Source: a virus
Virus record (IMG/VR): IMGVR_UViG_3300020185_000072
Span: 1-48,369 of that record
Strand: one strand, 5' to 3'
Length of the DNA: 48,369 nt
Shown: positions 707 to 47,900 of the stretch, piece by piece
Numbering within the stretch: position 1 is the first letter of the stretch
Layout: the number at the start of each line of letters is the position of its first letter
Translations under genes and position numbers: made by a program
The notes under the pieces: model-generated
Database searches by the model: none
Seen by the model: the letters and a program-made list of their open reading frames with translations, nothing else
What the model was told of the DNA's origin: nothing

Positions 707-811
707 TGACATATGCAAGTTTACGGGCTGCCAATGTGTCAGTACTGCATGACAATGTATACCTGACAGTATGTCATGCTGCCTGACAGGATGTCAGTTT
801 TGCATGTGTCA
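707..811. promoter_or_regulatory. Operator array of TGACA/TGTCA half-sites
   Basis: Two palindromes TGACA-N3-TGTCA lie at 764-776 and 784-796, exactly 20 bp apart (about two helical turns). The wider match is CCTGACAG-ATGTCA. Further half-sites occur at 707, 737, 750 and 807, the last between the -33 and -7 boxes of the promoter at 799-830. The second palindrome ends two bases before the TTTG box. This is the layout expected for a dimeric activator or repressor controlling the gene at 862. The regulator is unknown; the winged-helix protein at 3648 is one candidate. Confidence 0.6.
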
Positions 812-830
812 TACCCATGTACTATCTTAG
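799..830 (+). promoter_or_regulatory. Bacteroidota-type promoter for 862
   Basis: TTTG at 799-802, exactly 20 bases, then TATCTTAG at 823-830. This fits the Bacteroidota housekeeping pattern (TTTG / TAnnTTTG). The same boxes and spacing recur at 16061-16092 and 23704-23735. The leader to the ATG at 862 would be about 25 bases and A/T rich. Confidence 0.65.
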
Positions 831-1617: not shown

Positions 1618-1647
1618 TACTGAGTCGTATACATACAGAACTTTAGG

Positions 1648-1676
1648 AAAGGGGGCTTCGGCCTCCTTTCTTTTTG
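1648..1676 (+). terminator. Intrinsic terminator after 862
   Basis: AAAGGGGGC pairs with GCCTCCTTT (one wobble) around a stable TTCG tetraloop, followed by CTTTTTGC. Confidence 0.8.
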
Positions 1677-2469: not shown

Positions 2470-2497
2470 GCTGGACCTTATAGGTCTGGCTTTTTTA
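2470..2497 (+). terminator. Intrinsic terminator nested with a promoter
   Basis: GCTGGACCT pairs with AGGTCTGGC (two wobbles) around loop TAT, then TTTTTT. The -7 box of the next promoter starts at 2501. Confidence 0.8.
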
Positions 2498-2508
2498 TTA
2501 TATCTTTA
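2477..2508 (+). promoter_or_regulatory. Promoter overlapping the terminator, near-leaderless start
   Basis: The -7 box TATCTTTA at 2501-2508 lies right after the terminator T-tract and five bases before the ATG at 2514. Twenty bases upstream, at the terminator loop, stands CTTA instead of TTTG, so the -33 box is weak here. Confidence 0.45.
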
Positions 2509-2929: not shown

Positions 2930-2978
2930 TGTGCGTTACACCGGTTCGTGGTTTATCGGGGTTTCGTTATTTTAGGGG

Positions 2979-3015
2979 AGGGCCTCGTCAGTTATTGGCG
3001 GGGTCCTTTGCTTTT
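2979..3015 (+). terminator. Intrinsic terminator nested with a promoter
   Basis: GGGCCTCGTCA (2980-2990) pairs with TGGCGGGGTCC (2996-3006) around loop GTTAT, followed by TTTGCTTTT. It is a long stem with several G-U pairs. Confidence 0.75.
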
Positions 3016-3022
3016 AGTTTTG
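2991..3022 (+). promoter_or_regulatory. Promoter overlapping the terminator, for 3056
   Basis: TAGTTTTG at 3015-3022 matches the Bacteroidota -7 consensus TAnnTTTG exactly. Twenty bases upstream, in the terminator loop, is GTTA. An alternative -33 box, ATTG (2994-2997), has a 17-base spacer. Confidence 0.5.
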
Positions 3023-3055
3023 TTTTATTAAAGTCTTTAGCTTAGCTTAGTCTTC

Positions 3056-3300: not shown

Positions 3301-3330
3301 AGGGCTGTCTTCGGGCGGTCCTTTTCTTTT
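3301..3330 (+). terminator. Intrinsic terminator after 3056
   Basis: AGGGCTGTC (3301-3309) pairs with GGCGGTCCT (3314-3322) around loop TTCG, followed by TTTCTTTT. Confidence 0.75.
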
Positions 3331-3338
3331 ATACAAGA

Positions 3339-3370
3339 TTTGGATATATCAACAGAGCGTAGTAGATTTA
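3339..3370 (+). promoter_or_regulatory. Promoter of the terminase-portal operon
   Basis: TTTG at 3339-3342, 20 bases, then TAGATTTA at 3363-3370. The ATG follows at 3374, only three bases downstream, so transcription probably begins at or next to the start codon. Confidence 0.6.
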
Positions 3371-9816: not shown

Positions 9817-9835
9817 GTCACATAGATAATAAATC

Positions 9836-9865
9836 ATACGATTCTTTTGTATCTTCGAATCGTAT
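9836..9865. promoter_or_regulatory. Perfect 9-bp inverted repeat with embedded -7-like box before the scaffold gene
   Basis: ATACGATTC (9836-9844) and GAATCGTAT (9857-9865) are perfect complements around 12 bases that contain TATCTTCG (9850-9857), a -7-like box. There is no T-tract, so it is not a terminator. There is no TTTG at 20 bases (ATAA instead). This suggests an operator or activated promoter for scaffold and capsid. Confidence 0.5.
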
Positions 9866-9884
9866 AACTTAAATTTGAAACAGA

Positions 9885-12484: not shown

Positions 12485-12516
12485 AAAAGGAGCTGCCGTT
12501 TGGTGGCTCCTTTTTT
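12485..12516 (+). terminator. Intrinsic terminator after the capsid gene, nested with a promoter
   Basis: AAAAGGAGCTGCC pairs with GGTGGCTCCTTTT around loop GTTT; the T-tract is 12511-12516. Confidence 0.85.
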
Positions 12517-12530
12517 ATTTACTATCTTTT
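12499..12530 (+). promoter_or_regulatory. Promoter with -33 box in the terminator loop, for head fibre
   Basis: TTTG at 12499-12502 occupies the hairpin loop and first stem base. Exactly 20 bases later comes TATCTTTT (12523-12530). The ATG is at 12550, with an A/T-rich leader. Confidence 0.65.
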
Positions 12531-12549: not shown

Positions 12550-15015
12550 ATGAGTAGGTCACAAAAGCTTAAGAATAGCGCTACGCACGCGGGCAAGAAA
12601 TATCACTTTTCAACTCCGAGCGAGCGAGATGCATTTCTTCAAACGGCTAACGCAGCTTCTACTATTGAAGAACTTAGCGACGTAACAATCACATCTCCCG
12701 CAGAAAACGAAGTACTCTCGTACAACGGGTCTGAGTGGGTAAATGCGCCCGGAGGCGGTTCAAGTAACTCAGTTACGATTCAGGCCGAGGCACTGACCTC
12801 TATCCCCAACGGCTCATTGTGTTACTTTTCAGACTATGACGGCGTAGACAATATGATGCGCGTTGATGACGCATATTGGTATCAATCCGCCCCAGACTTT
12901 AGGCCAAATTCTGTAGTTGGAGTAAACAATGGCCCAGCGGTATCGGCTGGACAAGTTTTTGAGGTCACCATGCAAGGAGAGGTAACCATCAGCGCTGCGT
13001 ATGGTTTAGATGGTGGAAACACTACCATCTATAAAGGCGACGCCCTTTACGCCAGCCAAAGATTTGGTTTATTTGTTACATCAGATAGCTCGTCAGGCAC
13101 TCACATTGGATGGGCTATTGAAGACCTTGACAACACGTATAAGGTAAAAGCACAGTTTAGGTCACCTCGGTTGTACATGAGTGAAATGTCAGATGGCACA
13201 ATGGACTACATGTCAGTATATGAAGGGGCGTTGGCGCCTCCAGCTGTTAACAGAGGTGACTTGCTAATCTCAGACGGCTATGACGCTACCACGGATAGAA
13301 ATAACTATCGCTCGTACGTTCAGGGTGTGGACTCTTTTAGTGAAGTTGTTGCAATATGCGCTGACCGGCAACTAAGAGGTAGTTATTCTATTAGAGCTGT
13401 CCATGCTGGCATCACAAATGTACCAATTGAGGATGGGTTTGCACACTTTAACTACGGCAAGCCGACGCCTATTTACACTAAAGTTGGAACTACTGGGTTA
13501 ACTGCCGACCCCGCAAGCGGTGAGTTTGTAGGATTCGTACTCGGAGATTCATTACGCAGTGACGGCGCTTCTCGTATTAGCTTTGTTCCACCGGGTTCGT
13601 CCGTAGACGATACTTATATTTATCAAAGTCAGACAGCTTTTCTTGAAGTTGACATTACAGCTATAATTAATGCACCAAACCCGGGCAGCACCAACTTTCA
13701 GTATTTTGGTATTGGAGAAAACTACAAGCTAGGTTCCGATAGTTACGGGAATAATGATACTGGAAAGACATTTCTTGTTGATTCGGTAGATACCTCGCGC
13801 GGCAAGAACGAACTCGCCGGAGCCCACACGTTGGCTACAGTAGAAGATTTTGCAGCGGCTATTAAAGAGTTTATAGAGGCGCCGCTTAGCCCAGCTGACA
13901 CGGTACAAACAAGCTCGCAAGGTCTTAGCTATTATAAAGTTAACGCCTATGACGCTTTCAATATTGTTAGAACCGGTAACAGACTAAGGTTTAATGCACC
14001 AACTGCAGGATACGGCGGCAATAAATACGCTGTTAGCTTTTTTGGGACTTGGTCCTCAGTGTTAGATGGTTATAAGTTTAAAGGAGGTTACTCAACTGGA
14101 CCTGCCGGAAAAGCTAGTAACTCTTATACACGAGTTATTGCCGACGAAGACTTAGGCGCTGGGCACATTGTCTACCAAACAGGGTGGGATTCTGCAACTG
14201 GACTTCCTACTGTAACTGACAACGTAACTACTATTAAAGATGGTGTATGGAAAACCCCTCTTGGTATTGTAGACTCTACTACGCTAACAGCCTCTGCTGT
14301 AACAGCTGGTTCTGAGTTTGCGCTTTGCACAAGCGGACTTGTTGCTTCTGCGTTTGTACAAGTTGACCCCGTAACATCTCTACTGCCACCCGCAGGCGCA
14401 ACACTTTGCGCTGATGCAGAAAACGGAGCTTTGCTAACTCGCGATAATGGTTCGGGACTTCCGGTAGCTGTTATGATTTATCCGGGTTCAGGTACTTACG
14501 ATAGCGCTGTGTGGTTTACAGGAGGTGCTAAAGATAGCTTCCTCCGTTCTACTGGTGACGGAGTGCGCATGGGAAATACTTCTCGTATCTCTGCCGTTGG
14601 TAACGGTGCTACTATTCCAGCAGGTGCTGCTTTGAAGCACTCTGGTGCTGCCTCTAATGTAGCTGGAAAATACACACTCTTCGAAACCGGTAACGCGGCC
14701 AACCTTATCGTCGGACTTTCAGCTACTAAAAGCACTGGTGCTGACACAAGTGCTGACGCCTTTTCTCTATGTACTGGAGGTCTTGTAGGCAGTGTGATTA
14801 TTAATGATGCAGCTGGTGCAGTTATTGGAACAGCAGCCGGCGCTATTGAAGGTCAGGTAGTTTACACAGGTGACGGCACTACAAATGCGGCGCACGTGCT
14901 GACAACCGACCCTACCTCTGGAGTTGCTGTTGGTATTGTTCATGAGGCTACTAAGCACGGCACTACAGAGCCTGATACTTGGACTGTTTTGTTCCAACCT
15001 TCACGTTTACATTAA
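12550..15015 (+). CDS. Head-fibre / capsid decoration protein
   Basis: 821 residues, directly after the capsid gene, where crAss-like phages encode head fibres. Residues 1-29 form an anchor shared with the 862 protein (17 of 29 identical). Next comes a fibre linker module, LSDVTITSP-VLSYNG-WVN (about 42-60). Then follow repeated beta-rich domains with the recurring theme NGP/SG-hydrophobic, YxG, VGFVLG and GIVxxxT, as in multi-domain decoration or fibre proteins. The last 150 residues contain at least two related domains (FALCTSGLV and FSLCTGGLV). It probably projects from the capsid and binds surfaces or host glycans; that is inference. It is monocistronic, bounded by terminators on both sides. 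Confidence 0.65.
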   Translation: MSRSQKLKNSATHAGKKYHFSTPSERDAFLQTANAASTIEELSDVTITSPAENEVLSYNGSEWVNAPGGGSSNSVTIQAEALTSIPNGSLCYFSDYDGVDNMMRVDDAYWYQSAPDFRPNSVVGVNNGPAVSAGQVFEVTMQGEVTISAAYGLDGGNTTIYKGDALYASQRFGLFVTSDSSSGTHIGWAIEDLDNTYKVKAQFRSPRLYMSEMSDGTMDYMSVYEGALAPPAVNRGDLLISDGYDATTDRNNYRSYVQGVDSFSEVVAICADRQLRGSYSIRAVHAGITNVPIEDGFAHFNYGKPTPIYTKVGTTGLTADPASGEFVGFVLGDSLRSDGASRISFVPPGSSVDDTYIYQSQTAFLEVDITAIINAPNPGSTNFQYFGIGENYKLGSDSYGNNDTGKTFLVDSVDTSRGKNELAGAHTLATVEDFAAAIKEFIEAPLSPADTVQTSSQGLSYYKVNAYDAFNIVRTGNRLRFNAPTAGYGGNKYAVSFFGTWSSVLDGYKFKGGYSTGPAGKASNSYTRVIADEDLGAGHIVYQTGWDSATGLPTVTDNVTTIKDGVWKTPLGIVDSTTLTASAVTAGSEFALCTSGLVASAFVQVDPVTSLLPPAGATLCADAENGALLTRDNGSGLPVAVMIYPGSGTYDSAVWFTGGAKDSFLRSTGDGVRMGNTSRISAVGNGATIPAGAALKHSGAASNVAGKYTLFETGNAANLIVGLSATKSTGADTSADAFSLCTGGLVGSVIINDAAGAVIGTAAGAIEGQVVYTGDGTTNAAHVLTTDPTSGVAVGIVHEATKHGTTEPDTWTVLFQPSRLH

Positions 15016-15042: not shown

Positions 15043-15073
15043 AAGGGGAGCTTCACTTGGAGTTCCCCTTTTT
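15043..15073 (+). terminator. Intrinsic terminator after the head fibre, nested with a promoter
   Basis: AAGGGGAGCT (15043-15052) pairs with AGTTCCCCTT (15061-15070) around loop TCACTTGG, followed by TTT. Confidence 0.85.
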
Positions 15074-15087
15074 ATTTTTTATATTTA
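15056..15087 (+). promoter_or_regulatory. Promoter with -33 box in the terminator loop, for the basic-protein operon
   Basis: CTTG at 15056-15059 lies in the hairpin loop. After 20 bases comes TATATTTA at 15080-15087. The ATG follows at 15093, so the message would be leaderless or nearly so. Confidence 0.55.
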
Positions 15088-16060: not shown

Positions 16061-16092
16061 TTTGCGTATGTAGTACAGCTTACGTATCTTAG
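16061..16092 (+). promoter_or_regulatory. Promoter for 16138
   Basis: TTTG at 16061-16064 begins the base after the stop of the previous gene. Exactly 20 bases later is TATCTTAG (16085-16092), the same -7 box as at 823 with the same spacing. Confidence 0.65.
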
Positions 16093-16103
16093 TTGCACAG
16101 AAC

Positions 16104-16122
16104 GACCCCGTTGGGTCTTTTA
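16104..16122 (+). terminator. Terminator-like hairpin in the leader of 16138
   Basis: GACCC-CGTT-GGGTC followed by TTTTAT. It lies downstream of the promoter at 16061-16092. It therefore both closes the basic-protein operon and sits in the first 30 bases of the next transcript, like a 5' stabilising hairpin or attenuator. Confidence 0.6.
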
Positions 16123-16137
16123 TAGCAACATTTAGAT

Positions 16138-16932
16138 ATGCAGAAGACTGTATTTATTTACCGTCGTCCGAACACGACTAATCTTCCGGACGATGTTTAC
16201 GTAGAAGCTAAACGACGAATTGGCTCCGTGTACGTAAAAGGCGGTGACATCCTTAAAGGATTGACTATTGCCGAACAAAAGAAGTGGCTTCCTGAAGTTC
16301 TTGGTATTTCTCCAACTGAAGCAGGGTGGGCTAAAATGGTTCGCGCTTATTTTGCGAACTTGACAATTGACGTTCCTGCAGATGGGGTGACCTTAAACAT
16401 TGATACAGATGAGGAGGGCAACCCTATTAATGTTATAGACTACATTAAGTATCGTTTTGCAATGGAGCATCCTCATGTTTCTTTGGATGAAAAAAGCAGC
16501 AAAGGACGCTACTTTATTTCTGACCCATTGAAGGAAGAGGCTGAAGCTGTGGCAGATACGCGTTTGCGTAAAGACGCTTATAAGCAGCTTATTATTCTTG
16601 GAGACGATGTTGAACGGGCTACTCTTGTGCTTAAAGCTTTTGGCGTGCAAACTGCAAACCTCTCTGCCGAGCAGATTGAACTTGAGCTTGAAGACCTTCT
16701 TGAGGAAGACCACGCTGAGTTTATCCGAGTATGCACTGACAAGAACATTGAAACAATTGCTCTTATCTGGGATTGCGTTGAAGCTAATGTTCTTCGTAAG
16801 TCTGGTAACACCTTCTTGTTTGGAGACGAGGTTATCGGAGAAGACATGGAACAGGCTATTCGTTTCTTGGGTCTGAAAAAGAACAGCACAATGTTGCTGG
16901 ACATTAAAGCTAAGCTGAAGGCGTTTAGCTGA
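16138..16932 (+). CDS. Conserved structural protein, possibly auxiliary capsid
   Basis: 264 residues. The N-terminal half (VKGGDILKGLTIAEQKKWLPEVLGISPTEAGW-VRAYFANLTIDVPADG, about 35-82) resembles a structural protein common in large aquatic phages, with the W-P-LG-SP theme followed by a beta segment. The middle is charged and helical (DPLKEEAEAVADTRLRKDAYKQL). An acidic stretch ELELEDLLEEDHAEF is followed by a compact helical end. It stands between capsid-related genes and the ring-like protein, so an auxiliary capsid or connector role is likely. The exact role is unknown. It has its own promoter, leader hairpin and terminator. Confidence 0.5.
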   Translation: MQKTVFIYRRPNTTNLPDDVYVEAKRRIGSVYVKGGDILKGLTIAEQKKWLPEVLGISPTEAGWAKMVRAYFANLTIDVPADGVTLNIDTDEEGNPINVIDYIKYRFAMEHPHVSLDEKSSKGRYFISDPLKEEAEAVADTRLRKDAYKQLIILGDDVERATLVLKAFGVQTANLSAEQIELELEDLLEEDHAEFIRVCTDKNIETIALIWDCVEANVLRKSGNTFLFGDEVIGEDMEQAIRFLGLKKNSTMLLDIKAKLKAFS

Positions 16933-16954: not shown

Positions 16955-16988
16955 AAGGGGCGGGGCTATTGCAGTTCTGCCCCTTTTT
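16955..16988 (+). terminator. Intrinsic terminator after 16138, nested with a promoter
   Basis: AAGGGGCGGGGCT (16955-16967) pairs with AGTTCTGCCCCTT (16973-16985, some wobbles) around loop ATTGC, then TTT. Confidence 0.85.
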
Positions 16989-16999
16989 GCGTAGATTGC
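16968..16999 (+). promoter_or_regulatory. Promoter with -33 box in the terminator loop, for 17027
   Basis: ATTG (16968-16971) is in the loop. Exactly 20 bases later is TAGATTGC (16992-16999), close to TAnnTTTG. The ATG is at 17027. Confidence 0.5.
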
Positions 17000-17026: not shown

Positions 17027-17716
17027 ATGACCGTACAAGAAATGCATTACGCACTTGAGCAAGGACTCCAACGAGTTGCTGCTAATGCTTATGATTATCT
17101 CCTTGATGCAGAGAAAGACCACTGGCTTAATCGCGCGCAAGATAGGTTTATCAAAGACCGTGCTTTTATCTCAGGAGACGTTAAACGTATTGGGTTTGAA
17201 GGAAACCAGAAGCGCCTCGATGATATCCGCACCTTGGTTACCTTAAACTATGTTGACACCTTCCCTCCTACAACTGTAGCAGAGTTCCGTCAAGTAGACT
17301 TACCCGCAGATTACTTATATCTTGTTAACATTCGTGCTGACATTCGCAAAGATAATTGTGGAGACGTGACCACCTCATCGCCACAAGCCCAAGTGCCTGT
17401 GCGTGTGGTAGATAACGCTGAAGTTTATTTCATGCAACAGAATCCTTTTGCTAAATCTCAGCTAAACTCACCACTATGTATCATTGCTGAAAACGATATT
17501 CAAGTGTATCAAGATGCCGAAAGTTACATATTAGAAGGAATTAGCGCAGACTACATTAGGATTCCTGAATCTATTAACTTAGCTTTATCTCAAGATTGTG
17601 AACTCGCTGAGCACACCCATCAGGAGATTGTCGATATCGCGGTCAAGAATATCCTTGAAGCGATTGAGTCTCCGCGCTATCAGACATCAAGTGCTGAGCA
17701 GCTCACATCTGAATAA
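17027..17716 (+). CDS. Ring / head-tail connector protein (crAss-like)
   Basis: 229 residues. The opening MTVQEMHYALEQGLQRVAANAYDYLLDAEKDHWLNRAQDRFIKDRA matches a conserved crAss-like structural family that begins with a short motif, then YEKS or AEKD, then a helix of the LNxAQ type. The middle is beta-rich with LPADYLYLVNIRADI. The end, HQEIVDIAVKNILEAIESPRYQ, is the family's usual C-terminal helix. In crAss001 proteins of this kind form rings below the portal. Which ring it forms cannot be told from sequence alone. It is followed after 14 bases by 17731. Confidence 0.6.
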   Translation: MTVQEMHYALEQGLQRVAANAYDYLLDAEKDHWLNRAQDRFIKDRAFISGDVKRIGFEGNQKRLDDIRTLVTLNYVDTFPPTTVAEFRQVDLPADYLYLVNIRADIRKDNCGDVTTSSPQAQVPVRVVDNAEVYFMQQNPFAKSQLNSPLCIIAENDIQVYQDAESYILEGISADYIRIPESINLALSQDCELAEHTHQEIVDIAVKNILEAIESPRYQTSSAEQLTSE

Positions 17717-18541: not shown

Positions 18542-18580
18542 AAGGGGAGGTTGCTACAAAGCTTCCTCCCCTTTCTTTTT
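18542..18580 (+). terminator. Intrinsic terminator after 17731
   Basis: AAGGGGAGG (18542-18550) pairs perfectly with CCTCCCCTT (18565-18573); an inner GC/GC pair lies beyond a TT/TT mismatch. It is followed by TCTTTTTA. GTTG overlaps the stem-loop junction, but the matching -7 position (18574-18581) is only TCTTTTTA, so a promoter here is doubtful. Confidence 0.8.
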
Positions 18581-19412: not shown

Positions 19413-19445
19413 CCCCCGGTTACTGTTTGTGTAGCTGGGGGATTT
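19413..19445 (+). terminator. Intrinsic terminator, nested with a promoter
   Basis: CCCCCGGTTAC (19413-19423) pairs with GTAGCTGGGGG (19431-19441, two wobbles) around loop TGTTTGT, then ATTTG. The T-tract is short. Confidence 0.7.
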
Positions 19446-19457
19446 GTCTTATCTTTT
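19426..19457 (+). promoter_or_regulatory. Promoter with -33 box in the terminator loop, for the fibre-tail-cargo operon
   Basis: TTTG at 19426-19429 is wholly inside the hairpin loop. Exactly 20 bases later is TATCTTTT (19450-19457), identical to the -7 box at 12523. No clear terminator follows to the right edge. Confidence 0.65.
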
Positions 19458-19468
19458 AAATAATATAC

Positions 19469-19486
19469 GGGGGCTTTCCCCTTTAA
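19469..19486 (+). other. Leader hairpin before 19497
   Basis: GGGG-CTTT-CCCC (19470-19481) followed by TTTAAAA, between the promoter at 19426-19457 and the ATG. It is a second case, besides 16104, of a terminator-like hairpin in the 5' leader. Confidence 0.45.
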
Positions 19487-19496
19487 AACGACTAGG

Positions 19497-23703: not shown

Positions 23704-23735
23704 TTTGTTTAAAGGCTACTAAAGAACTATATTAG
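23704..23735 (+). promoter_or_regulatory. Internal promoter before the holin cassette
   Basis: TTTG at 23704-23707, exactly 20 bases, then TATATTAG at 23728-23735. The ATG of the 51-residue gene follows four bases later at 23740, so the message may be leaderless. Confidence 0.55.
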
Positions 23736-35900: not shown

Positions 35901-38900
35901 ATGGCTGAAGAAAATCTCCCGCCGGACATGGCTGCTACCCCAGCCCCAGAGTCATATGACTCATCTATATCGAATACCCCTACCCCTGAGCCCACAGATG
36001 CCCCGGACGTCCCGGAGCCTGTGGATTTTGAGGGTTTTTATGGTTACAGCACTTCGCCTAAAATGGATGCTTCCCAGACGGGTACATCTCTTGGCCAGCT
36101 GCCTGAGTACTTAAACAACCCGCTTGACAGTAACGCGTATTACAACGCAGCTGTTGCTCAGTCTCCGTGGGAGGCTTTGGGTAACGGCCTGTACCGTGGT
36201 GTGTTTGGTGAGATTATAGGTGGTACGATTGCTGGGTTTGGCGCCTTAGGTAACAGAAGTTTGTGGGAGGGTGACTACAGCGAGCGTAACTTGTTGGAGC
36301 GCATGGGTAATGCGATGATGGAAGGGGCCAACGAGGACGCTGCTATTTACGAGCGGAATCCGGGGGCTGCATTTCAGTGGGGTGACGCTGCGTGGTGGGG
36401 TAAGAATCTGCCGTCGATGATGTCTACCATCAGCATGATGATTCCCGGTATGGCTGTCGGTAAAGGTGCAGGCCTCGTAGGAAAAGGATTGCGTATGGGT
36501 GCAGGAGCTGTCCAAAAAGCAGCAAAGGTTGGGGCTAAAGCTGAGAAAGTATTAGGGGTTGCTGGCGATTTATTTCAAGAAGGGTTGAAGACTGCCGGTG
36601 GTGCTGTGGCTATGCGTCACGCTGAGAATATGCGAGAAGCACACGGTGTATTTGAACAAGCCAAGTCTGAGTTCCTTAGTGACTTTAAGCCTGTTGGTGC
36701 TTACAAAGGTACAGAGGCTTGGAAACAGTTTCAAGAGCACATTGCTAAGGAAGAAGGCAAGGCCCGTAAACCTACTAAGGCTGAGCTCGCTGATTTCGTT
36801 GCCGCACAAGCAGCCAAGAAAACGTACGCTGTTAACAGCTACAACCTTGCGTTTGACATGATGCAGTTCCACGCTCTTGGTAAAATGATGAAGGGCACGC
36901 GTGGTGCATTTAAAGGAGCCGCAGCTGCTAGGGCAGCAGGTGCCACTAAAGGTGCAGTTCGCATGGCGCGTCTTGGTGACGTTGCTAAGTTTGTTGCTTT
37001 GGATATGGGCACGGAGGGCATCGAGGAGATGGTCAACTACGTCGGTACTGAGGAGGGCATGTACAAAATGCGCAACAGTCTTGGCTTGGAAGAATCTAGG
37101 CTTGAGGACCGTTTGAAAGAGTACACAGACGACGACCACTTCTGGGAGTCTGGTTTTCTTGGTGCTATCGGTGGTGCTGTGTTTACTGGTGTAGGCGGTG
37201 CAGTTAGCAAAGCCCGCAATAGCAAGGCACAGAACGAACTCATTGAGAAGGCGCAAGCCCGAGGCAAGAAGCTGACGAGTCTTGCTGCTGATGCTGACAA
37301 GGCAAGTGCTGGCGAGCTTACTCCACAAGAAGCAGGAGTTAAGCGACGTAAAGCTATGTACGATATTGGTCTTGAAGCTGCTGCTAGCGGACAAGCCGAC
37401 ATAGTGGACAGTCAGATTGCCAGCTATGAGCAAGCTCTCGTAAACGAAGGTATGTCTGCCGGCGAGGTAGCTGAGGCTAGTGCAGAGATGCGCGAGCAAT
37501 TGCAGTTGGCTGAGGAGGCTGTTAAAGAGGCAATGACTGCTACAAAGAGTAAAGACTTAACCAAAACTGAACGAGCGCTTCTTACTCAGCAGATTACAGA
37601 AAATCAGTTTGTTCAACAAGAGTTAAAGCGGCGTCGTGAAGAGCTAGCTCCCGAGCTTGCTAACATCAAGAATCGTGAGGAGCAAGTCCAACAGATTGAG
37701 CGTGAAGAGCTTGAGGCTGTGACTACTCTTCTTGATGCTATGGAAGAGTCTGAGGCTAAAATTCCAGACGAGCTAAAACGCCGGCAGGCTATCTTGCAGG
37801 AGCGCGTTGACAAGCAACCTAAAGAGGAGAACAACGTTGAGGAGCTAAAGCAGAAGCTGAAGGAGGCGAAGGAAGCTGAGCGTACTCGTGAGTCGCGTGA
37901 GACTTTTGCGGATGAGCAGGTTGCTAAAGAGCTATCTGCGCAACGGATTGCTGGTCTTGAGCAAGATATCGCTAGTGCTGAAGCGGGCAAGACCAAAAAG
38001 GAAAAGGTTGAGGTTAACAGCAACCTCGAGGAGTTCGTTAACAGCGAGATTGATACGGAGCTTTTGCAAGAGGCGCGCGCTGATTTGACTACGGACAAGG
38101 GGCTAGAAAAGCTTACTACACTTGCTAAGAAGGTTGACGATGTTATGGAGGTTCGCAATGACAAGGAGTTCCGTGAGCTCGTTGACAACATGCGTGACCA
38201 GAAAGAGCTGAAGCGTTTGCATAAAAAGGCAGAAACTGAAGCAAAGAAAGATTACATTGACAACCGCATTAAAACTCTTCAGATTCAAGAGGCTAATGAA
38301 AAAGCTGCCGACAGTCAGCAGCGCAGTAAGGATGTAGTAGTGCCGGGCCCAACACAAGAAATTGTGGACCAACTCTTAGCAAACAGTGACAACGTTTCGC
38401 TAAACTCTCTTACAGACGAATCTCGTTCTGAACTTACAGCCGAGCTTACAGCCCTTGAGACTGTAGCCTCTCCTACAGAGGAGCAGGTAAATCGTCGTGC
38501 TGAGATTGAAAAGACTCTTGAAGAAGAGAACAAGTACTACGTAGACTCTCGGACAGGTAAGAGGTACATGCGTACCACCACTTGGATTAAAGGTGATAAG
38601 GAGTCAGACCCCTTTAATGCGGACACCAGTATGTACTTCTACCCAAGTACTAACATTGGTAACTCTGTTGACGAGTACGTTCGTGACTTCTTTGACGGCA
38701 AGCTCCGCAAGCCAGAGGCATACCCACATCTCCCTGCTGATTTGCAGGAGCACTTAAAGCAACAGCTCGTTGAGTTGGAAGCAGAGTTTGTGGCCAATGG
38801 TGAGAAGGTGATTGCCAAAGACGTCGTTTTGTTTAACGACATGGACGTCAGTGACAAGAACGCGGACGGTGTTGCCGGTACTGTTGACTTGCTGACTGTA

Positions 38901-41900
38901 GACAAGGAGGGTAACTTCCGTATCTACGACATGAAGACTATCCGTGATGCTGCGGCCAAGAAGAAGGTTATCTCACTCGAAGGTGGCATGGCCATCTACG
39001 GCAAGGGAGACATAGCATACAAAAACAACCCTAGGTTAGAGGTGAAGCACCAGCAGCAGTTGTCTGCTTACCGCTTGATGCTTATGCACCAGTTCGGTGT
39101 TAAAGTCCCGATGCTTGGTATTATCCCCGTTGATGTTTCGTATGAGGTGAACAATAAGATGAGCCAAGAAGAGCGGAAGGCCATCGCAACCCGAAGGGCC
39201 AACTACCTTGGTTTGATTACTCACACTGCCTTGACGGATATAAACGGGCTGACTGAGCCTAAAGATGTCATTGACACTGACGATGTGCCAGATGAGCCAG
39301 CTAATCCTAAACAACATTTGATTGACCGCCACACTGGGTCTATCAGTAAGGAGAAAGCTAAGCACGCCGCAGCTCTTGAGTTGTTGCAAGAACTGCGCAA
39401 GTCTGAAAGTACGGAAACAGAATTGTACGACGCTTATAAGCAACAGATGCTTGACGCGGTTAACGAGATTGCTCGATTGAACAAGCTTATTACTCGTTAC
39501 GGCGGCTCTGCAGTTCCATTTACCGACCCGGGTCTTGACCCTATTACTGATACAGAAGGCGAGGCCGGCAAGGAAAAGGAAGAGGAAGAGGAAGAACCAA
39601 ATAATAGTTCTCCCAACATTGAGCTGTCTGCTAACGAAGTGTCTGTTCCTCTGTCCACTTTGGTAAGTTATTTTGCAACGCGCCTGACTACAATTAAAGA
39701 GCCCGGCCGTGAGCAGGGCCCATACTTGGTACACGCTCACGCTGGGCCAGTGCAAATGTCTGGCGACAATCTTGCAGCCTACCAAGCTTTGATGAGTGTG
39801 CTTGATGGTAGCAACACTGAAAACATTACGTTTGAAGTTGAACAAACTGGTAATGCTGGCCTACCTGTAACTGTGTTCTCTGGTCTTAAAGGAAAGAAGG
39901 GTCCTCTGACCTCGACCAACCGTAAAGACAGAAAAGGCAAAGTAGTTCCTGAGTATACTTACAATCCTACTGCCGCTGACGGACTGCAAGTTGTAATGAA
40001 GATTGGGGGTGTCACTATTGGTACCCTCCCTACTGCAGGTGAAGCATTTAGTAGTGCGCATCTTGCAGGGCAGGCATCTATGACTACTAACAAATTTGCT
40101 CAGAAAAGTTTTGCAGAAGGCAGTCGTGCTGGTCAGCCTGTTATTGCAGGTGAAAACAGCGCTATGATGATGCAGCAAGAGGCTGCACTTGAGAATGCAC
40201 TTAATATACACGCACTTCGTGAGGCGTTGCACGAAGCTAGTAAGCAGGGTGCAAGTGTTGTGTCAATTAAACTTCGCGCTGGCGCAACACAGAGTGGGCA
40301 AGTTGCACAAGGAGGACTTATTTACTCCACAGGCCAAGGCGCTATGGGCAGTGAGTTTCAAACGCTACGTAATAGCATCCTAACTCACGGGCTTGCTTTG
40401 CAGTTGCCATCTACATCTAAAGGTAAACAGCAGGTAGAAACCCAGAATGGTCTTATTGTTTCTGCGTATCAACAAAACGTTGAATATAATGGTAACGCTA
40501 GTTCTGATACAGTTCCTCCTTGGAACAGTGGTGCTTTGTATGTTCCTATTGAAAACAACGGAGAGGTACTGTGGGTTCGCGTGCCGGGACGTTCCCTCAG
40601 TCAGCTTCGTTCAAGCGATGAGATTATTAAAAACGTACAAGAGACTTTGGAAAGCGGCAATGAGCAGCTTATCAACGAGTTACAAAACGTGCTTGGTAGT
40701 CGCGCATTGCAGCAAGATAAAAATGGTGTGTGGCATATCTATGCTAATAACATTACTGGCCAACAAGTAGAGCCTATTAGTTCATTGCGCAACGGTTCTT
40801 GGACTACAGATTTAACAGGCATTGTGCCTAACATGATTTTTGACGTGGCTGTTGTTACGTCAGAAGAAACTTCGTCTGCATTTAAAGACCCAAGCCGTGC
40901 ACTTGGTATTGGTAAGATGGAGTGGGACAACCTTGCTACATTTGTTGCCGAAGAGGTTGGCATTGGCTACGAGCCGGTAGTTGACGAGAACGGCGATGTT
41001 ACGGGTTGGACTCATACACTTGCCCCTGTTTACCCCGGTAGAGATACTAAAGGTGGCAGCCAACAAACTCGTTTTGTAAACCAAAACACTGCTGACACAC
41101 AGCTAGTTATTGCAGTCGAGCCTGTCTCTGCTGAGGTAGCTGAAGAGCAGAAAAAGAAGAAGCTTTCTGGTAAGGAACTTGATAAGAAGCTTGACGACGC
41201 TCTTAAGCCTGCGCCTAAACCTGCTAGTAAATCTTCTAAGGAAGGAACAGTAGACCTTGATGCCCTTAACAAGCGGTTTGAATCACTAAGTAAATTTGTT
41301 GATGATAAGCTTGGAGATGACGATGCGCCTATTTGGTTTACTCAAGCAGCGGCAGAGTCTAGCAATAATGCTGAGAAGGCTACTAAAGCTGATATGGAAC
41401 AGGCTGAAGAATGGTGGGCACAGAATGTGCCAAACGTTCCGTTTAAGCGAGTGTCTGGGATTATCCGCCGTAATGGTACTACTGGTTACGGTATTTTTGA
41501 AAAGGGTGCCGTTCAGGTAAGTGACATTGCTGTAATAGGTACAGAGTTTCACGAAGCGTTCCACGCTGTGTTTCAGATGTTCTTGTCTGACGAGCGTCAA
41601 GCTAAAGTTCTTGCAGACGCTAGGCGTGTCTTTGGAGAAAAGAGTGCGGAGCTGCTAGAGGAGGACTTGGCAGAGTCTTTCCGTGAATACATGTTGACCA
41701 AGGGCTTGAGCATGAAAGACAAGAGCGTTGTACGCCGGTTCTTCTCTGAGCTTGCAGCTCTTATTGAAGCTCTTATTACTGAGGGGTTCTCTGGCTATCG
41801 CCGCATGCGCCTCTTCAATGAGATTAACAGTGGGGGCTTTACTAACAACGATGCTAAGGTAAGGGAATACGCTACGCGTAACCGTCTTATCATGGCTGAG

Positions 41901-44900
41901 ATTCCTGAGTTTAACTCTAAGATACAAGAGGAGCTGAACACAATGCTTAAGAACGGAGCGTTCCGTGCATTGCGTCATGTGCAAGACGGAAAGGGTACGC
42001 CAGAGATGAAGGCTGCTTATGCTGAGCTTGTTAAGCATTATAACACGGCAGAGTCAGAGCTGCAAGAAGAAGGCGTGCTTCGCCCCGGTGAGACGAAAGC
42101 AGAGTTTATTACAAAGAACATGTTGAATCTTGGCATTGTTCCTGTAATACAAGATGGTCGTCGTGTGGGTCGTTTTAATGAAGACTTGCGTCCTCGTATC
42201 TTGCAACTCTTTGATAATAAGCAAGCTATCATTGACTTCTTTACCGCAGAACCCGGTATGCAGAAGCATGTAATGGCTTTGATGAACCAAGAGTTTACTG
42301 CTGGTACTGAGTCTGAGGTGCAGTATGCCGAGACCTTCGAGCGCATGAACCCGAAGGATAGTCTAAGCCAGACGGTTAAGTCTCTTATTGAGACGACGCC
42401 GATGATGAGCATCGAGACCTTTAACAATGGTGGTGAGATTCGCAGCCTTATGGCGGCAGCTACTATGGCACTGCAAGCAGGCAACCCTGAGCAGGCCCGA
42501 GCTAACGTGCAGCAGATTATTCAGCGCGTAGGCGAGTCTCCAACGCAAAGCTACTTTGGCTTGCCACAAATGATGAACGTAGACCTTGTGTTTCCGTTCC
42601 TGTCTGAGCGCTTGGCTAGTAAAGCCAGCCCTGAAGAAATGTATGCAGAGCTTGACCGCATCGGCACGGTGTACCCTGAGTTCCGTTTGCTAGCCCTTCG
42701 TTTGCAGCAAGAACCAAATTGGGTGCAGGCTCAGTTCTTTTCTGGGATGCGACGTGGTGAGACTGCGGAGCTTATTCAAGAAAGCTCAGGTTACCTTGCT
42801 GAAAATTCAACGTTTAGTTCTGTGCTGTTTACCTACAACAGCCAACGCATCCAAACACACCTACGTGACCTTGCTCGCAAAAACGGTAAGACCGTAGCCC
42901 AGATGTCTGATGCTTTTGCAAATCGTGTACAAGAGCTTGGCAAATCTTTGACGAGCATTACAGACAAGCAGTTTGTTGAGAGTTCTACTCGGTTGTTGGA
43001 CGCTATTGGATTTGGAACTAAGGACGCTAAGGCACGCAATCGAGTGCTGGCACTTGGAGCGTCTGACGTAGAGTTTCGTAAAAACTTGTTTGCATTTGCT
43101 GGAAACACGTTGCGCAACTTTAGCAACATTGCTGAGGTAAGCGAAATTGAAAACACAGAATCTCGCAAAAAGTTTAACGCCAACCTTAAAGGGTTGACTA
43201 ACTTGTTTGCCCCGTATGATATGGGAGCTGTAGCTACTACGTTTACTAACGTAGAGGGCAGCCGTATCTACAGCAAGCAAGTTCCTTCATTTATTACTGA
43301 GTGGTTCGACCAGTTCGATGCTGGCCGACTTAGTAAGGCAGAGCTTGAGGCTAAACTCCGCAAAGAAGTTTTTGCTGACGAGCGCATGTATGCTACTACA
43401 TATGGACGCCTTCTTTTCCCACAAGGCAAAGATGGTCGTTTTATTGATACGGCACTTAAGGCCGGTGCTGTCCGTGCTTACCGTGTTGGTGGAATAGACC
43501 GAGGCGACGGTACTACGTATACTAGCATGACTGAGGCACAGTGGTATGAGTTTCAACTCCGAGCACTTCAAAGCCGAATTAACGGTATTGTTTACTTGCC
43601 TGTTACGACCCCGTCCGATGCTAGTAATAGTTACATGGTGCCTGCTATTCGTTACAACATGTCAGATACCTCTGGCTCTTCTCAAGCTAAGACTGCGGTG
43701 CATGGTTTGATTAAGGCGGAGATTCAAGAGATGCAAATCCGTGGCGGCCGCTTTGCTTTAAAAGAAGTCGAAGACTTTATGGCAGGCAAACTGCAGCGCG
43801 ACAGCGACGGAGTTATACTTGACAAAGTTGTGCCAGAGGCTATACTTGCTGAAGCCGCTACCATTGCTATGGAGGCCCTTGAAAAGGAGGGCAGAGCTAT
43901 TAGCCGGTTGGAACAGTTTAGCGATGCAGTAGATGCTGTTGCTAGCGAGGATGCTACTCCTGAGCGTCGTCAGCAAATGGCCCACAACCTTGTGGTTGCA
44001 GGTTATATTTCTAACATGTCTACTGCCATAGCTATGGCGGGAACTCATAATGAGTTTAAGAACACGGTGGACATGCAAAAGCGCCACAAGCAAATCATCT
44101 CTCCGGGCTTGGCTAACGCAGGTGTGTCTGGTAAATCTCACTTCCGTAGCGTTACACTAGCAGAGACCGTGTTAGACCTGCAATCGTTTAATAGGGCGTT
44201 GAATGATAATTACAAGAAGGTTGAAGTTGCAGACGCTCAGTCTTACGTTAGTCCCGAGTTCTACAAGACTATTTTGCTTGAGCACGGCGACCTAACCCCT
44301 GAGATGGAAGTCGCACTTGACAAAGCCATCGCGGGGGAGAAGCTCGACCCGGCTGAGGTAAAGCTGTTGCGTCCTTACAAGCCGTTTTATTACAGCCGTG
44401 CGCTAGATAAGAACACCGGACTGCTTACGTCTTACCAGATTAAAAACTCTATTATCCCTGTTATTAAGGGATTGAGCGAGGATTTTGATAAGTTCAACGA
44501 CTGGATGAGGGACAACAAGATTGACCAAGTTCAGATGGAGTCTGCCCACAAGGTGGGTAAGAACGAGCGCAAGCTTGTTGAGCTTCGTGATAAGGAGACT
44601 GGTGCGTTTAACGGTAAGAAGTTAAGCGAGTCCCAGCAAAAGACGCACGTGCATGTATTGCCAATGAACGGCTATCGCAAGCAGGTAAACGTTACTGACC
44701 ACTGGCATAGCAATAGCACGAATAAGCTTGCCTCTCAACTCGAGAAGATTGTAGTTGCTGGTGCTGTTCGTAAGATGGGCGAAGAAGGCAAGCAGATTGC
44801 TGAAGAGTTTTTGAGCACGCTTGACAAAATCTACAAGAAGCAGAAAGACGATTTCTTTGGTCGATTCAAAGTAGAGCTCGGCAGCGACATCATGGACAAT

Positions 44901-47900
44901 AAAGAGTTCCAAGAGTGGCTGCGTAACGAGCTTATTTCTGACGAGGCTACACCGCAATATATGATTGACTTGGTAGAGCAAGGTCTGTTCACTGCGCCTG
45001 CTGTGGTAGGTGCAATGCGGAGCCGCGTATTCTCTGCCATTCAACGTGACGTTAATACTGTTCGGGTTGCAGGTGGTACACAGGTTCAAATTGCCAGTCA
45101 GTTTTTCCGCCGCAACAAAAACGAAGAAGGTAAAATTACCCGCTTGCGTGGTATGCGTAAAGAGACTGTTACTTCGGGAGAAGTGGTGGCTAACCCTCAG
45201 TTAAAGCTTGCGGAGATGCTTTTCGAGCAACTCGCTTACAGGTATGAAGTTGCTGATAACGAGAACGGCGACAACCCACGACCGCTTAGAGCCGCTGACT
45301 TGGCTAAGTCTCCTAAGGAGTGGAAGAAGATGGTTGTGTTTCAAGACGCAGAATCTCAGATAGGCAGGAGCGAGCTTGGTGACATTGTTGACAAAGCAAT
45401 GGTAAGAGTCTTATCCGCGCATGCTCAAAAGAATCGGATGGGGGAAGACTTCATTGCAGTTCAGTCTTACGAGGAGCTTGTGGCAGAGGCTAAGGACGCT
45501 GAGTCTTTATTTCCTGAAGAGCGCGGTGCTGCAGAAAACTTGATTATTAGCTTTGCTAAAGAGTTTACAACAGCAGGAGAAGTAACGGAAGTTATTAGGC
45601 CTGCAGAGATTGCAGTGAGCCGTGACTTCTTGCCAAAGAAGTACCGTGATATGTCTATCGCAGAGATAAAGGCTACGGCACCTGAGGTGCTGAAGTCTAT
45701 TACCCTGCGTATCCCGTCGGAGGCTATGAACTCTGGCAGCGTAGTCGAGGTAGTTGACTTCTTGCCTGAAGGCATGGACGGTGTAATTGTTCCAGATGAG
45801 TTTGTAACTCAGATGGGTTCTGACTTTGACGTGGACAAGTTGTTCTTCCAGTTCCGCGAAAGTGGTGACAAGGGTAAGCTGTTTGACTTGCAGGTCAAAG
45901 TATTCGAAGACCAGCGTATGTTGTCTGACATTATGGAGCCGCAGGGCTTTGATGGTCTTGCCGCAAAAGCTAGCGACCCTAAGTATAAAGTACGTAACGA
46001 AGCACAGGAGGATTTCATTAGGAATAACCCAATGAGTGTTGCCACTCACGGCTGGATGCGTGGAGATAATATGGCAGGTGTCGCATTGAAGGGGCAGGCT
46101 GCTAACAAGAACATTATCTTCCTTGACCTTGTTCGTTACGGATGGAAATGGGAAAACGAGAACTACCAGATAAACGGAGTAAGCGTAAATTTTGATGGCT
46201 ACAAAGTTAGCGATGCTCTTGTTCGTATCCATGCTGAGGCAGTAGCTGCAGCTATGGACGGGGCTAAAGACCCTGTATATGGTAAGCTTGGTATCACGAA
46301 TAAAAACTTCGGGATGTTTATGGAGCTTATTATGATTGCTGATAACACGTTAGCTACTCCAAAAGGGCAGACGCGTGACCAGCGCATTAGCCAGCTGCTT
46401 GACTTTGCATTAGATATTACTCAGTCTGAACCCGGCCTCTTGATGGCTAACGGACACATTAGCATTAATGGAGGCAAGCTCGTTACTGTAACTGCTAACA
46501 CTGAAAAAGGTAAAGCGTTTCTCACAAAGGTTAAGAATAGTTTTGACGCAGCTGAAATAACAAATGAGGGTACTGTTATGACATTGCCTAAGAATGGCAA
46601 CCTGTTCTCTGGTGCAAACAAATCTGCTGATGGAAAAGCCCTCGGCCTTCTCACTTCTGCCATTGGCACATGGAAGTCAGAGGTTAGTGACAACCTTAGC
46701 TATGTCAATAGCATAATGCGTCTTGACAAGGCCAACGTTAGAGAGAGCATCGAGGATGTACTGACTATGGCCCCTAGCCAGCTTGGTATCTACGGTGAAC
46801 TTCGTAATGGCTTTAATCGTACGTCAGAAGAACAAACCTCTGTTCCATTTTTAGGAGCCCTTTATAACATGCATGTTAAAGGCGTTATGTACGACATGTT
46901 TGGAGACACAGCGCGCATGCTATCGTTTGCAGGCGATGGCTTCTTGATGTTTAAGCAAATCATGGCTTCCGACTTCCCAAAGGTGGCAGCTGCTATGAAT
47001 ATGGAAGCTTACGACGCTAAGAAACGTGACATTGCTGCCGCTGAGTTTGCCTACGAACAAGTGTACACCGCTATGGGTGAGCGCGACACTCGTGCACCAA
47101 AGGCCCTTAGTGAAGACCGCAGCGAATGGTCTCTTGAAAACTGGCTTCGATACTTTGCCACTAGCGAAGAGATTGAAACAGACGAGGACTTGAACCTCGT
47201 AGTAGGTAAGTTGCTTGTGCAAACTAATCCCTACACAGTAGATGGTAAGTACTTTGATAACATTACATTAATCGGGGTCTCTGATGACAGTGAGTTAAAG
47301 CAGGTAACTGACGCTATGGAGCGTCTTGATAACAGCGATAACCCTGACATCTTTGATTTTGTTGGAGCTATCCAAATGTACGAGGCCCAGCGTAGCCGGT
47401 ACCAAACTAGCCTTGGACGTATGACCAAGATTTTGCCTAGCCGTGTGCAAGTTGCACTAGGTTCGCAAGTTGGGTCTGACGGCATTCTGGATATACTGTC
47501 TACACAAGAAGACTTTTGGGACATAGTCGCGCATACTGCACACAATCCCAACCTACCGTACTTGAGTGCCAAAACCCTTAATGAAGCTATTATTAAGGCA
47601 GAAAACAAAAAGCAAGGTGGTAGCTACCGCACGTTAGATAATTTCGTGCTTATCCCAGTATCTGAATCGAAGGAGGGTGTAGAGTACAAGGCAGTAAAAT
47701 CTCCAAACGCTGACGCTTCGAACCGTGCGCAGAAGTTCTCAGGTAAGCCTGTAGATATGGACCTGAGTACAGACCAAGATGCTTATGGCTTAAGTGAAGG
47801 TGTTGACTACGAGTCTCGATTGGGCTGGTACAAACCAGAGCACGACGTGGAGACGAAAGTTCAAATGCTGCAAGAGCGGTTCCGCAAGAGCGGTGTTGCA

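What the first reader, a model, noticed from the sequence alone, without database searches (positions are those of the whole stretch)
12485..12530. Promoter nested in a terminator: -33 box in the hairpin loop
At the capsid / head-fibre boundary, the intrinsic terminator (stem GGAGCTGCC / GGTGGCTCC) has TTTG at its loop, and TATCTTTT stands exactly 20 bases downstream, beyond the T-tract. The same design recurs at 15043-15087 (CTTG / TATATTTA), 16955-16999 (ATTG / TAGATTGC) and 19413-19457 (TTTG / TATCTTTT), always with a 20-base spacer. Weaker forms occur at 2470-2508 and 2979-3022, where the loop box is TTA. One 45-base element thus ends one transcript and starts the next. I know of no described phage punctuation module of this kind. 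It could let a terminating polymerase restart in place and keep each gene at its own level.
Basis: partly seen in the sequence, partly recalled or inferred. Interest (0 to 1): 0.9.

Follow-up and report, generated by a model that had tools for sequence, protein, structure and literature searches.

The report
Terminator and promoter fused into one
In a marine crAss-like phage and its closest relatives, a DNA element of about 45 bases appears both to stop transcription of one gene and to start it for the next, with half of the start signal inside the loop of the stop hairpin; this lets genes be inserted or lost without breaking the punctuation.

Summary
At 12489, 15045, 16957 and 19413 a terminator-type hairpin carries NTTG in its loop and TAnnTT exactly 20 bases later. 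The weak form at 2470 is supported by a counterpart with a full TTTG. The one at 2979-3022 is a misreading: a separate promoter (TTTG 3019, N20, TAGCTTAG) follows that terminator in tandem.

Un-nested promoters with the same boxes and the same 20-base spacer stand at 799, 3019, 3339, 9846, 16061 and 23704, so this is the phage's late promoter. It has the Bacteroidota primary-sigma form (-33 TTTG, -7 TAnnTTTG). In the nine genomes or fragments analysed from the same close clade, 35 late-strand terminators have TTG in the loop. Of these, 23 have TAnnTT at 19-21 bases (6.6 expected with swapped tails; 0 of 20,000 permutations reach 23). Sister crAss-like clades and 252 Bacteroidota terminators show no such excess. 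A rumen phage without a detectable crAss-like capsid gene has about nine such elements.

Near the capsid the element sits at almost every cassette boundary, and whole cassettes have been gained or lost without breaking the punctuation. Restart 'in place' by the terminating polymerase is untested. No RNA data exist, so dual function is inferred.

The parts
12489..12530 (+). Fused terminator-promoter after the major capsid gene: hairpin 12489-12510 (stem GGAGCTGCC/GGTGGCTCC), -33 box TTTG 12499-12502 in the loop and closing pair, T-tract, -7 box TATCTTTT 12523-12530; next ATG 12550
   Evidence: module kept in relatives L002, L004, L006, L007 and L011 although the downstream genes differ
15045..15087 (+). 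Fused terminator-promoter: hairpin 15045-15068, -33 box CTTG 15056-15059, -7 box TATATTTA 15080-15087; ATG 15093, five bases after the box
   Evidence: counterparts before the orthologous gene in G001 (20142) and G003 (6708)
16957..16999 (+). Fused terminator-promoter: hairpin 16957-16983, -33 box ATTG 16968-16971, -7 box TAGATTGC 16992-16999; ATG 17027
   Evidence: same module type at G003 8685 and G004 4948, where it precedes a different gene
19413..19457 (+). Fused hairpin-promoter: hairpin 19413-19441 with a weak T-tract, -33 box TTTG 19426-19429, -7 box TATCTTTT 19450-19457; ATG 19497
   Evidence: counterparts G001 28627, G003 15254, G004 11874
2470..2508 (+). Weak fused form: hairpin 2470-2490, loop CTTA 2477-2480 in place of TTTG, -7 box TATCTTTA 2501-2508; ATG 2514
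   Evidence: the module before the apparent counterpart gene in G001 (9759) has a full TTTG in the loop
2975..3050 (+). Tandem, not fused: terminator hairpin 2975-3011, then promoter TTTG 3019-3022, N20, TAGCTTAG 3043-3050; ATG 3056
3302..3370 (+). Tandem: terminator hairpin 3302-3321, then promoter TTTG 3339-3342, N20, TAGATTTA 3363-3370; ATG 3374
799..830 (+). Free late promoter TTTG, N20, TATCTTAG; ATG 862
9846..9877 (+). Late promoter between portal and next gene: TTTG, N20, TAAATTTG; the -33 box lies in a wide-loop inverted repeat (TACGATTC ... GAATCGTA) without T-tract
16061..16092 (+). Free late promoter TTTG, N20, TATCTTAG; 45 bases to ATG 16138, leader holds a small hairpin
23704..23735 (+). 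Free late promoter TTTG, N20, TATATTAG; ATG four bases after the box
1646..1670 (+). Terminator hairpin with TTCG loop, no promoter of this type found
18544..18568 (+). Hairpin GGGGAGGTTGCTACAAAGCTTCCTC with C/T-rich tail, no promoter of this type found

Best explanation
Each of these elements is an intrinsic transcription terminator and a late promoter fused into one stretch of about 45 bases. The promoter is of the Bacteroidota primary-sigma type (-33 TTTG, 20-base spacer, -7 TAnnTT[T/A][G/A]). The -33 box fits in the hairpin loop, and the 20-base spacer is made of the 3' arm of the stem plus the T-tract, so the -7 box falls just beyond the point where the upstream transcript should end. As RNA the element ends the upstream message. 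As double-stranded DNA it recruits host RNA polymerase for the next gene, whose mRNA then starts without the hairpin, often at or within a few bases of the start codon. Because each junction carries both signals, a gene cassette with one such element in front of it is a self-contained transcription unit: it can be gained or lost without breaking the neighbours' punctuation. Shown by sequence statistics: boxes, spacing, hairpins, conservation and cassette pattern. Inferred: that both activities operate in infected cells, and that host polymerase does the transcription.
For: (1) TTTG-N-TAnnTT in intergenic DNA of the late strand peaks at spacing 20 with 26 distinct sites, against at most 4 at any other spacing from 10 to 30; no peak on the other strand or in 197 loci of other crAss-like clades. 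(2) Of 339 terminator clusters in 348 loci, TTG in the loop with TAnnTT at 20 occurs 13 times and at 19 four times, all in the close clade; other spacings 4 or fewer. (3) In the clade, 23 of 35 TTG-loop terminators have TAnnTT at 19-21, against 6.6 with swapped tails; 0 of 20,000 permutations reach it. (4) Around 22 promoters the strongest hairpin is centred either on the -33 box (16) or 22-30 bases upstream of it (6), never between. (5) Unconstrained -7 positions agree in nested and free promoters: position 4 is A or C in 24/25 and 21/22, the last position G or A in 19/25 and 20/22. (6) Stems vary in sequence but stay paired while the loop box stays. (7) Natural loss: L008 keeps the terminator and TTTG loop after the capsid gene but has lost the -7 box, where a free promoter stands directly downstream. 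(8) Whole cassettes differ between genomes with 97-99% identical capsids, with a module at nearly every junction.
Against: No RNA 5' or 3' ends are available. The clade is about nine genomes or fragments that share ancestry, so site counts are not independent; I count about ten distinct module types. Some hairpins (19413 and its counterparts) have poor T-tracts, and two window terminators have no promoter of this type. The -7 box lacks the host consensus final G in about half of the sites. The cassette role rests on one hypervariable region in five genomes.
Confidence: 0.8

Rival explanations
1. These are ordinary terminators only; TTG loops and downstream TAnnTT are chance products of T-rich tails.
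For: T-tracts and AT-rich flanks make TAnnTT common, and GTTT-type tetraloops are ordinary terminator loops; swapping tails still gives 6.6 of 35 matches.
Against: The sharp 20-base peak, the matching free promoters at other junctions, agreement of unconstrained -7 positions, and no excess in 252 host terminators or sister clades.
Confidence: 0.05
2. The hairpin is part of the promoter itself, as in coliphage N4 where the virion polymerase reads hairpin promoters, or is a palindromic operator; it does not terminate transcription.
For: crAss-like phages carry a virion RNA polymerase; at the portal junction and at 19413 the -33 box lies in an inverted repeat with little or no T-tract.
Against: About as many promoters of the clade have the same boxes and no hairpin. 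Stem sequence is not conserved. Most hairpins are followed by 5-7 T. Sister clades have terminator-type hairpins after the capsid gene without the boxes.
Confidence: 0.08
3. Functional recycling: a polymerase that terminates in the element stays on the DNA and restarts at the nested promoter, coupling expression of successive genes (the first reader's proposal; an addition to the best explanation rather than an alternative).
For: E. coli polymerase stays on DNA after intrinsic termination and re-initiates at nearby promoters in vitro, 37% of terminations in one assay (PMC6978380). Here the end of the T-tract is only about 15 bases from the predicted start.
Against: Nothing in the sequence distinguishes recycling from plain compaction. 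A paused or terminating polymerase would also block the promoter. Tandem terminator-promoter pairs in the same genomes seem to serve as well.
Confidence: 0.2
4. Pure compaction: promoter and terminator were squeezed together because a 20-base spacer happens to equal one stem arm plus a T-tract; both work, but nesting adds no function.
For: The TTTG box can fit only in the loop or beyond the T-tract, which is exactly the two-peaked distribution seen. Convergent cases in rumen phage G010.
Against: Does not by itself explain why clade A nests about half of its promoters while most promoters of G010 are free.
Confidence: 0.4

Closest known systems
Bacteroidota primary-sigma (sigma-ABfr / sigma-A) promoters
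   Same: -33 TTTG and -7 TAnnTTTG, documented in B. fragilis, B. thetaiotaomicron and, for the -7 box, Flavobacterium (PMC7366714, PMC9723704)
   Different: Strict 20-base spacing here, whereas the B. thetaiotaomicron spacer is described as of variable length; -7 often ends in AG or TA; in about half the cases the -33 box lies in a terminator loop
Intrinsic (Rho-independent) terminators
   Same: Strong short hairpin followed by a T-tract at the end of genes
   Different: The loop and tail also carry a promoter in fixed register
Post-termination re-initiation by RNA polymerase (Kang et al. 2020, PMC6978380)
   Same: A promoter close to a terminator can be reached by the polymerase that just terminated
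   Different: Shown in vitro with E. coli polymerase and separate elements; here the elements overlap and recycling is not shown
Phage morons
   Same: Inserted genes that bring their own promoter and terminator (usage e.g. in PMC3918226)
   Different: Here one fused element at the 5' side of a cassette serves both neighbours, and the cassettes lie among structural genes rather than being prophage-expressed extras
Virion-polymerase hairpin promoters of coliphage N4 (from memory)
   Same: A hairpin and a promoter coincide
   Different: Here identical promoter boxes occur, at equivalent positions before genes, without a hairpin elsewhere in the genome

Membership tests
Intrinsic terminator | Stable G+C-rich stem of about 7 pairs or more with short loop | tested here: met
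   -14.7 to -19.4 kcal/mol for the four window sites, loops of 4-7
Intrinsic terminator | T-tract directly after the stem | tested here: met
   12489, 15045 and 16957 have 5-6 T; 19413 has a poor tract
Intrinsic terminator | RNA 3' ends in the T-tract | not testable with these tools
   no RNA data
Bacteroidota primary-sigma promoter | -33 TTTG with -7 TAnnTTTG | tested here: met
   -33 is TTTG, CTTG or ATTG in the window, and the final G of -7 is present in only about half
Bacteroidota primary-sigma promoter | Fixed spacing between boxes | tested here: met
   peak at 20 in clade A and in other phages G010 and G011
Bacteroidota primary-sigma promoter | Transcription start about 5 bases after the -7 box | not testable with these tools
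   needs 5'-end mapping
N4-type hairpin promoter | Hairpin required at every promoter of the class | tested here: not met
   free promoters with the same boxes and no hairpin at 799, 3019, 3339, 16061, 23704
Moron | Gene present in one genome and absent from the same junction in close relatives | tested here: met
   821-aa gene 12550 only in the window, 254-aa gene only in G003, fibre pair missing from the window
Moron | Own promoter and own terminator as separate flanking elements | tested here: not met
   one fused element per junction
Moron | Expressed from the prophage | not testable with these tools
   no lysogen and no RNA data

The most novel reading that the evidence does not exclude
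A phage genome punctuated by reusable fused terminator-promoters that act as plug-in boundaries for gene cassettes. Each element stops the upstream message, starts the next one (often leaderless), marks the place where cassettes are exchanged, and hands the terminating host polymerase to the nested promoter, so that every late gene is its own transcription unit. The design has arisen more than once among phages with Bacteroidota-type promoters because their 20-base promoter spacer matches one terminator arm plus its T-tract.
Probability: 0.3. Interest if true: 0.8.

Novelty: new variant of a known kind. Interest (0 to 1): 0.64.

Why it matters
It shows how two opposite transcription signals can share the same bases, and explains why they can: the host-type promoter needs 20 bases between its boxes, which is what one stem arm plus a T-tract occupies. 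It gives a genome-wide set of predicted late promoters and terminators for crAss-like phages, a dominant but experimentally little-mapped group, testable with a single RNA-end mapping experiment. It offers a mechanism for cassette-like gene exchange beside the capsid gene, and a compact part for genetic engineering in Bacteroidota.

Tried and rejected
Rejected: the weak form at 2979-3022 (tandem promoter instead). Rejected: chance and hairpin-dependent promoters (free promoters exist). A first version of the arm/tail correlation was circular because the sites had been chosen by spacing; it was replaced by the tail-swap test on unselected terminators. A rigid pattern search in 296 Bacteroidota genomes gave 0 hits, but the pattern is too narrow to carry weight, so hosts were tested by scanning 1.08 Mb of their DNA. 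An IMG/VR-wide pattern gave 13 contigs at spacing 20 against 6 at a control spacing: a weak excess, though it led to phages G010 and G011. A covariance model was considered and dropped because the loop is offset differently between module types. The last viral scan, with the 264-aa gene, found no new clade member. G010 could not be assigned to a family. No paper found describes nested terminator-promoters in phages, but the library is open-access only and phrase searches are weak.

Full report
WHAT THE WINDOW IS. The window is an IMG/VR virus record of 48,369 bases. It encodes a large terminase, portal and major capsid protein of crAss-like type, a relative of the crAss-like tail ring protein 3/4 (17027-17716, just below the curated cut-off), and a 4,156-residue open frame from 35901 that runs off the end on the same strand. 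I take every gene in the window to lie on the + strand. The capsid protein is 97-99% identical in about a dozen IMG/VR contigs (here 'clade A'), about 84% in a sister clade and below 80% elsewhere. A 264-residue gene (16138-16932) is found only in clade A, in eleven contigs, so the clade is close to fully sampled in that collection.

THE OBSERVATION. All four main sites are exactly as stated. Site 2470-2508 is a degenerate form: the module before what appears to be the same gene in relative G001 has a full TTTG loop. Site 2979-3022 is wrong. The bases read as a -7 box contain the -33 box of a separate promoter at 3019-3050 that stands directly after the terminator. The same tandem arrangement occurs at 3302-3370.

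THE PROMOTER IS REAL BY STATISTICS. On the + strand of the window, TTTG-N20-TAnnTT occurs eight times, always just upstream of a gene; other spacings give four or fewer and the - strand gives none at 20. Over clade A, intergenic late-strand DNA has 26 distinct sites at spacing 20 and at most 4 at any other spacing between 10 and 30; sister clades show no such peak. The boxes are those of the Bacteroidota primary sigma factor (PMC7366714, PMC9723704). A rumen phage, G010, has over 40 copies of TTTG-N19-21-TAnnTTTG on one strand, again with a sharp peak at 20, so strict 20-base spacing is not peculiar to this clade.

THE NESTING IS REAL. In clade A, 35 late-strand terminators carry TTG in or next to the loop; 23 of them have TAnnTT at 19-21 bases (17 at exactly 20). 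If the downstream tails are swapped between terminators the mean is 6.6 (3.2 at exactly 20), and none of 20,000 permutations reaches the observed number. Controls: 252 terminators in 1.08 Mb of DNA from Bacteroidota genomes give 2 at 19-21 and 17 at 18 other spacings, which is chance; crAss001, crAss002, cr271_1 and Cellulophaga phage phi14:2 give none. Around 22 TTTG promoters of clade A the strongest hairpin is centred on the -33 box in 16 and 22-30 bases upstream in 6, with nothing between. The unconstrained bases of the -7 box agree between 25 nested and 22 free promoters: position 4 is A or C in 24/25 and 21/22. In six modules of the type with a C-closed tetraloop, several stem positions change pair type while pairing is kept in at least five of six sequences at every position, and the TTG of the loop box is invariant.

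NATURAL EXPERIMENTS. After the capsid gene, relatives with different downstream genes keep the loop box and the -7 box (L002, L004, L006, L007, L011). In L008 the terminator and its TTTG loop remain but the -7 box is gone, and a free promoter, TTTG-N20-TACATTAG, stands directly after it. In L009/L010 the terminator has another loop and the promoter is free. Terminator and promoter can therefore be separated in evolution, which argues against a single hairpin-promoter.

CASSETTE BOUNDARIES. Between the capsid gene and the ring-protein gene, five genomes hold different sets of cassettes: a unique 821-residue gene in the window, a unique 254-residue gene in G003, a fibre-like gene pair in the other four genomes, and a set of three small genes in four of the five. 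Nearly every junction has a fused module or a free promoter (some modules were recognised because the hairpin caller missed them). In G003 the module at 6708, before the 92-residue gene, has the same hairpin as the module at G001 20142, before the orthologous gene, which there follows the capsid gene directly; G003 has an extra gene with its own module in between. The module thus goes with the gene downstream of it. In the window, the module type that precedes the fibre pair in G003 and G004 now precedes the ring-protein gene, as if a deletion had run from one module to the next gene. Interpretation (inferred): one fused element per junction makes any order of cassettes transcriptionally complete.

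MECHANISM. As RNA the element folds and ends the upstream transcript; as DNA it is a promoter whose spacer is the 3' arm plus the T-tract. The 20-base spacer is about the length of one arm (8-12) plus the tract (8-12), and a TTTG box can sit only in the loop or beyond the tract, which explains the two arrangements seen. If the start lies as in Flavobacterium, where the -7 box spans -12 to -5 (PMC9723704), the new RNA begins beyond the hairpin. In 26 of 47 promoters the ATG lies 3-8 bases after the box, most often 4, so many messages would be leaderless or nearly so. Whether the terminating polymerase restarts in place is open: recycling is known in vitro for E. coli polymerase (PMC6978380), but occlusion is equally possible.

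LIMITS. No transcript data; few genomes with shared ancestry (about ten distinct module types); the hairpin caller misses some sites; G010 could not be classified, although no crAss-like capsid match was found in it (an empty result that shows little by itself). Novelty is judged against an open-access library and general knowledge only.

Noticed in passing
window promoters at 3019, 3339, 15056, 23704 and counterparts in G001-G006: The distance from the -7 box to the ATG in clade A late promoters has two main groups: 3-8 bases (26 of 47, mode 4) and 39-60 bases (15). With flavobacterial start-site geometry the first group would be leaderless or nearly leaderless mRNAs.
   Followed up: partly
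16093-16137, 19458-19496 and counterparts: Most promoters with long leaders (39-60 bases) have one small G+C-rich hairpin in the leader; for the 264-aa gene it is GACCCCGTTGGGTC followed by TTTT, conserved in G001 and G003 and resembling a mini-terminator or 5' stabiliser.
   Followed up: no
L441-L445 (G010) and L446-L447 (G011): An unclassified rumen phage of about 101 kb with over 40 TTTG-N19-21-TAnnTTTG promoters on one strand, about nine of them nested in mostly A+T-rich terminator hairpins; some 3' arms resemble the spacers of its free promoters.
   Followed up: partly
9830-9877: At the portal/next-gene junction the -33 box lies in the wide loop of an inverted repeat without T-tract; in L008 the repeat is CCCCCAGC ... 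GCTGGGGG ending almost at the -7 box, while in L006 and G005 no such repeat is evident.
   Followed up: no
L049-L079, first 60 bases after the capsid gene: Many loci of another crAss-like clade have a conserved TTTTGGTTA shortly before the post-capsid hairpin and a conserved TAGAAA element after it; this may be a different late signal.
   Followed up: no
35901-48368: A + strand open frame of at least 4,156 residues runs off the window end; presumably the giant virion RNA polymerase polyprotein of crAss-like phages (by position and size only).
   Followed up: no
12550-15015: The 821-residue gene after the capsid gene has no counterpart in the compared region of four close relatives and only a short match to a tail-fibre family.
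   Followed up: no
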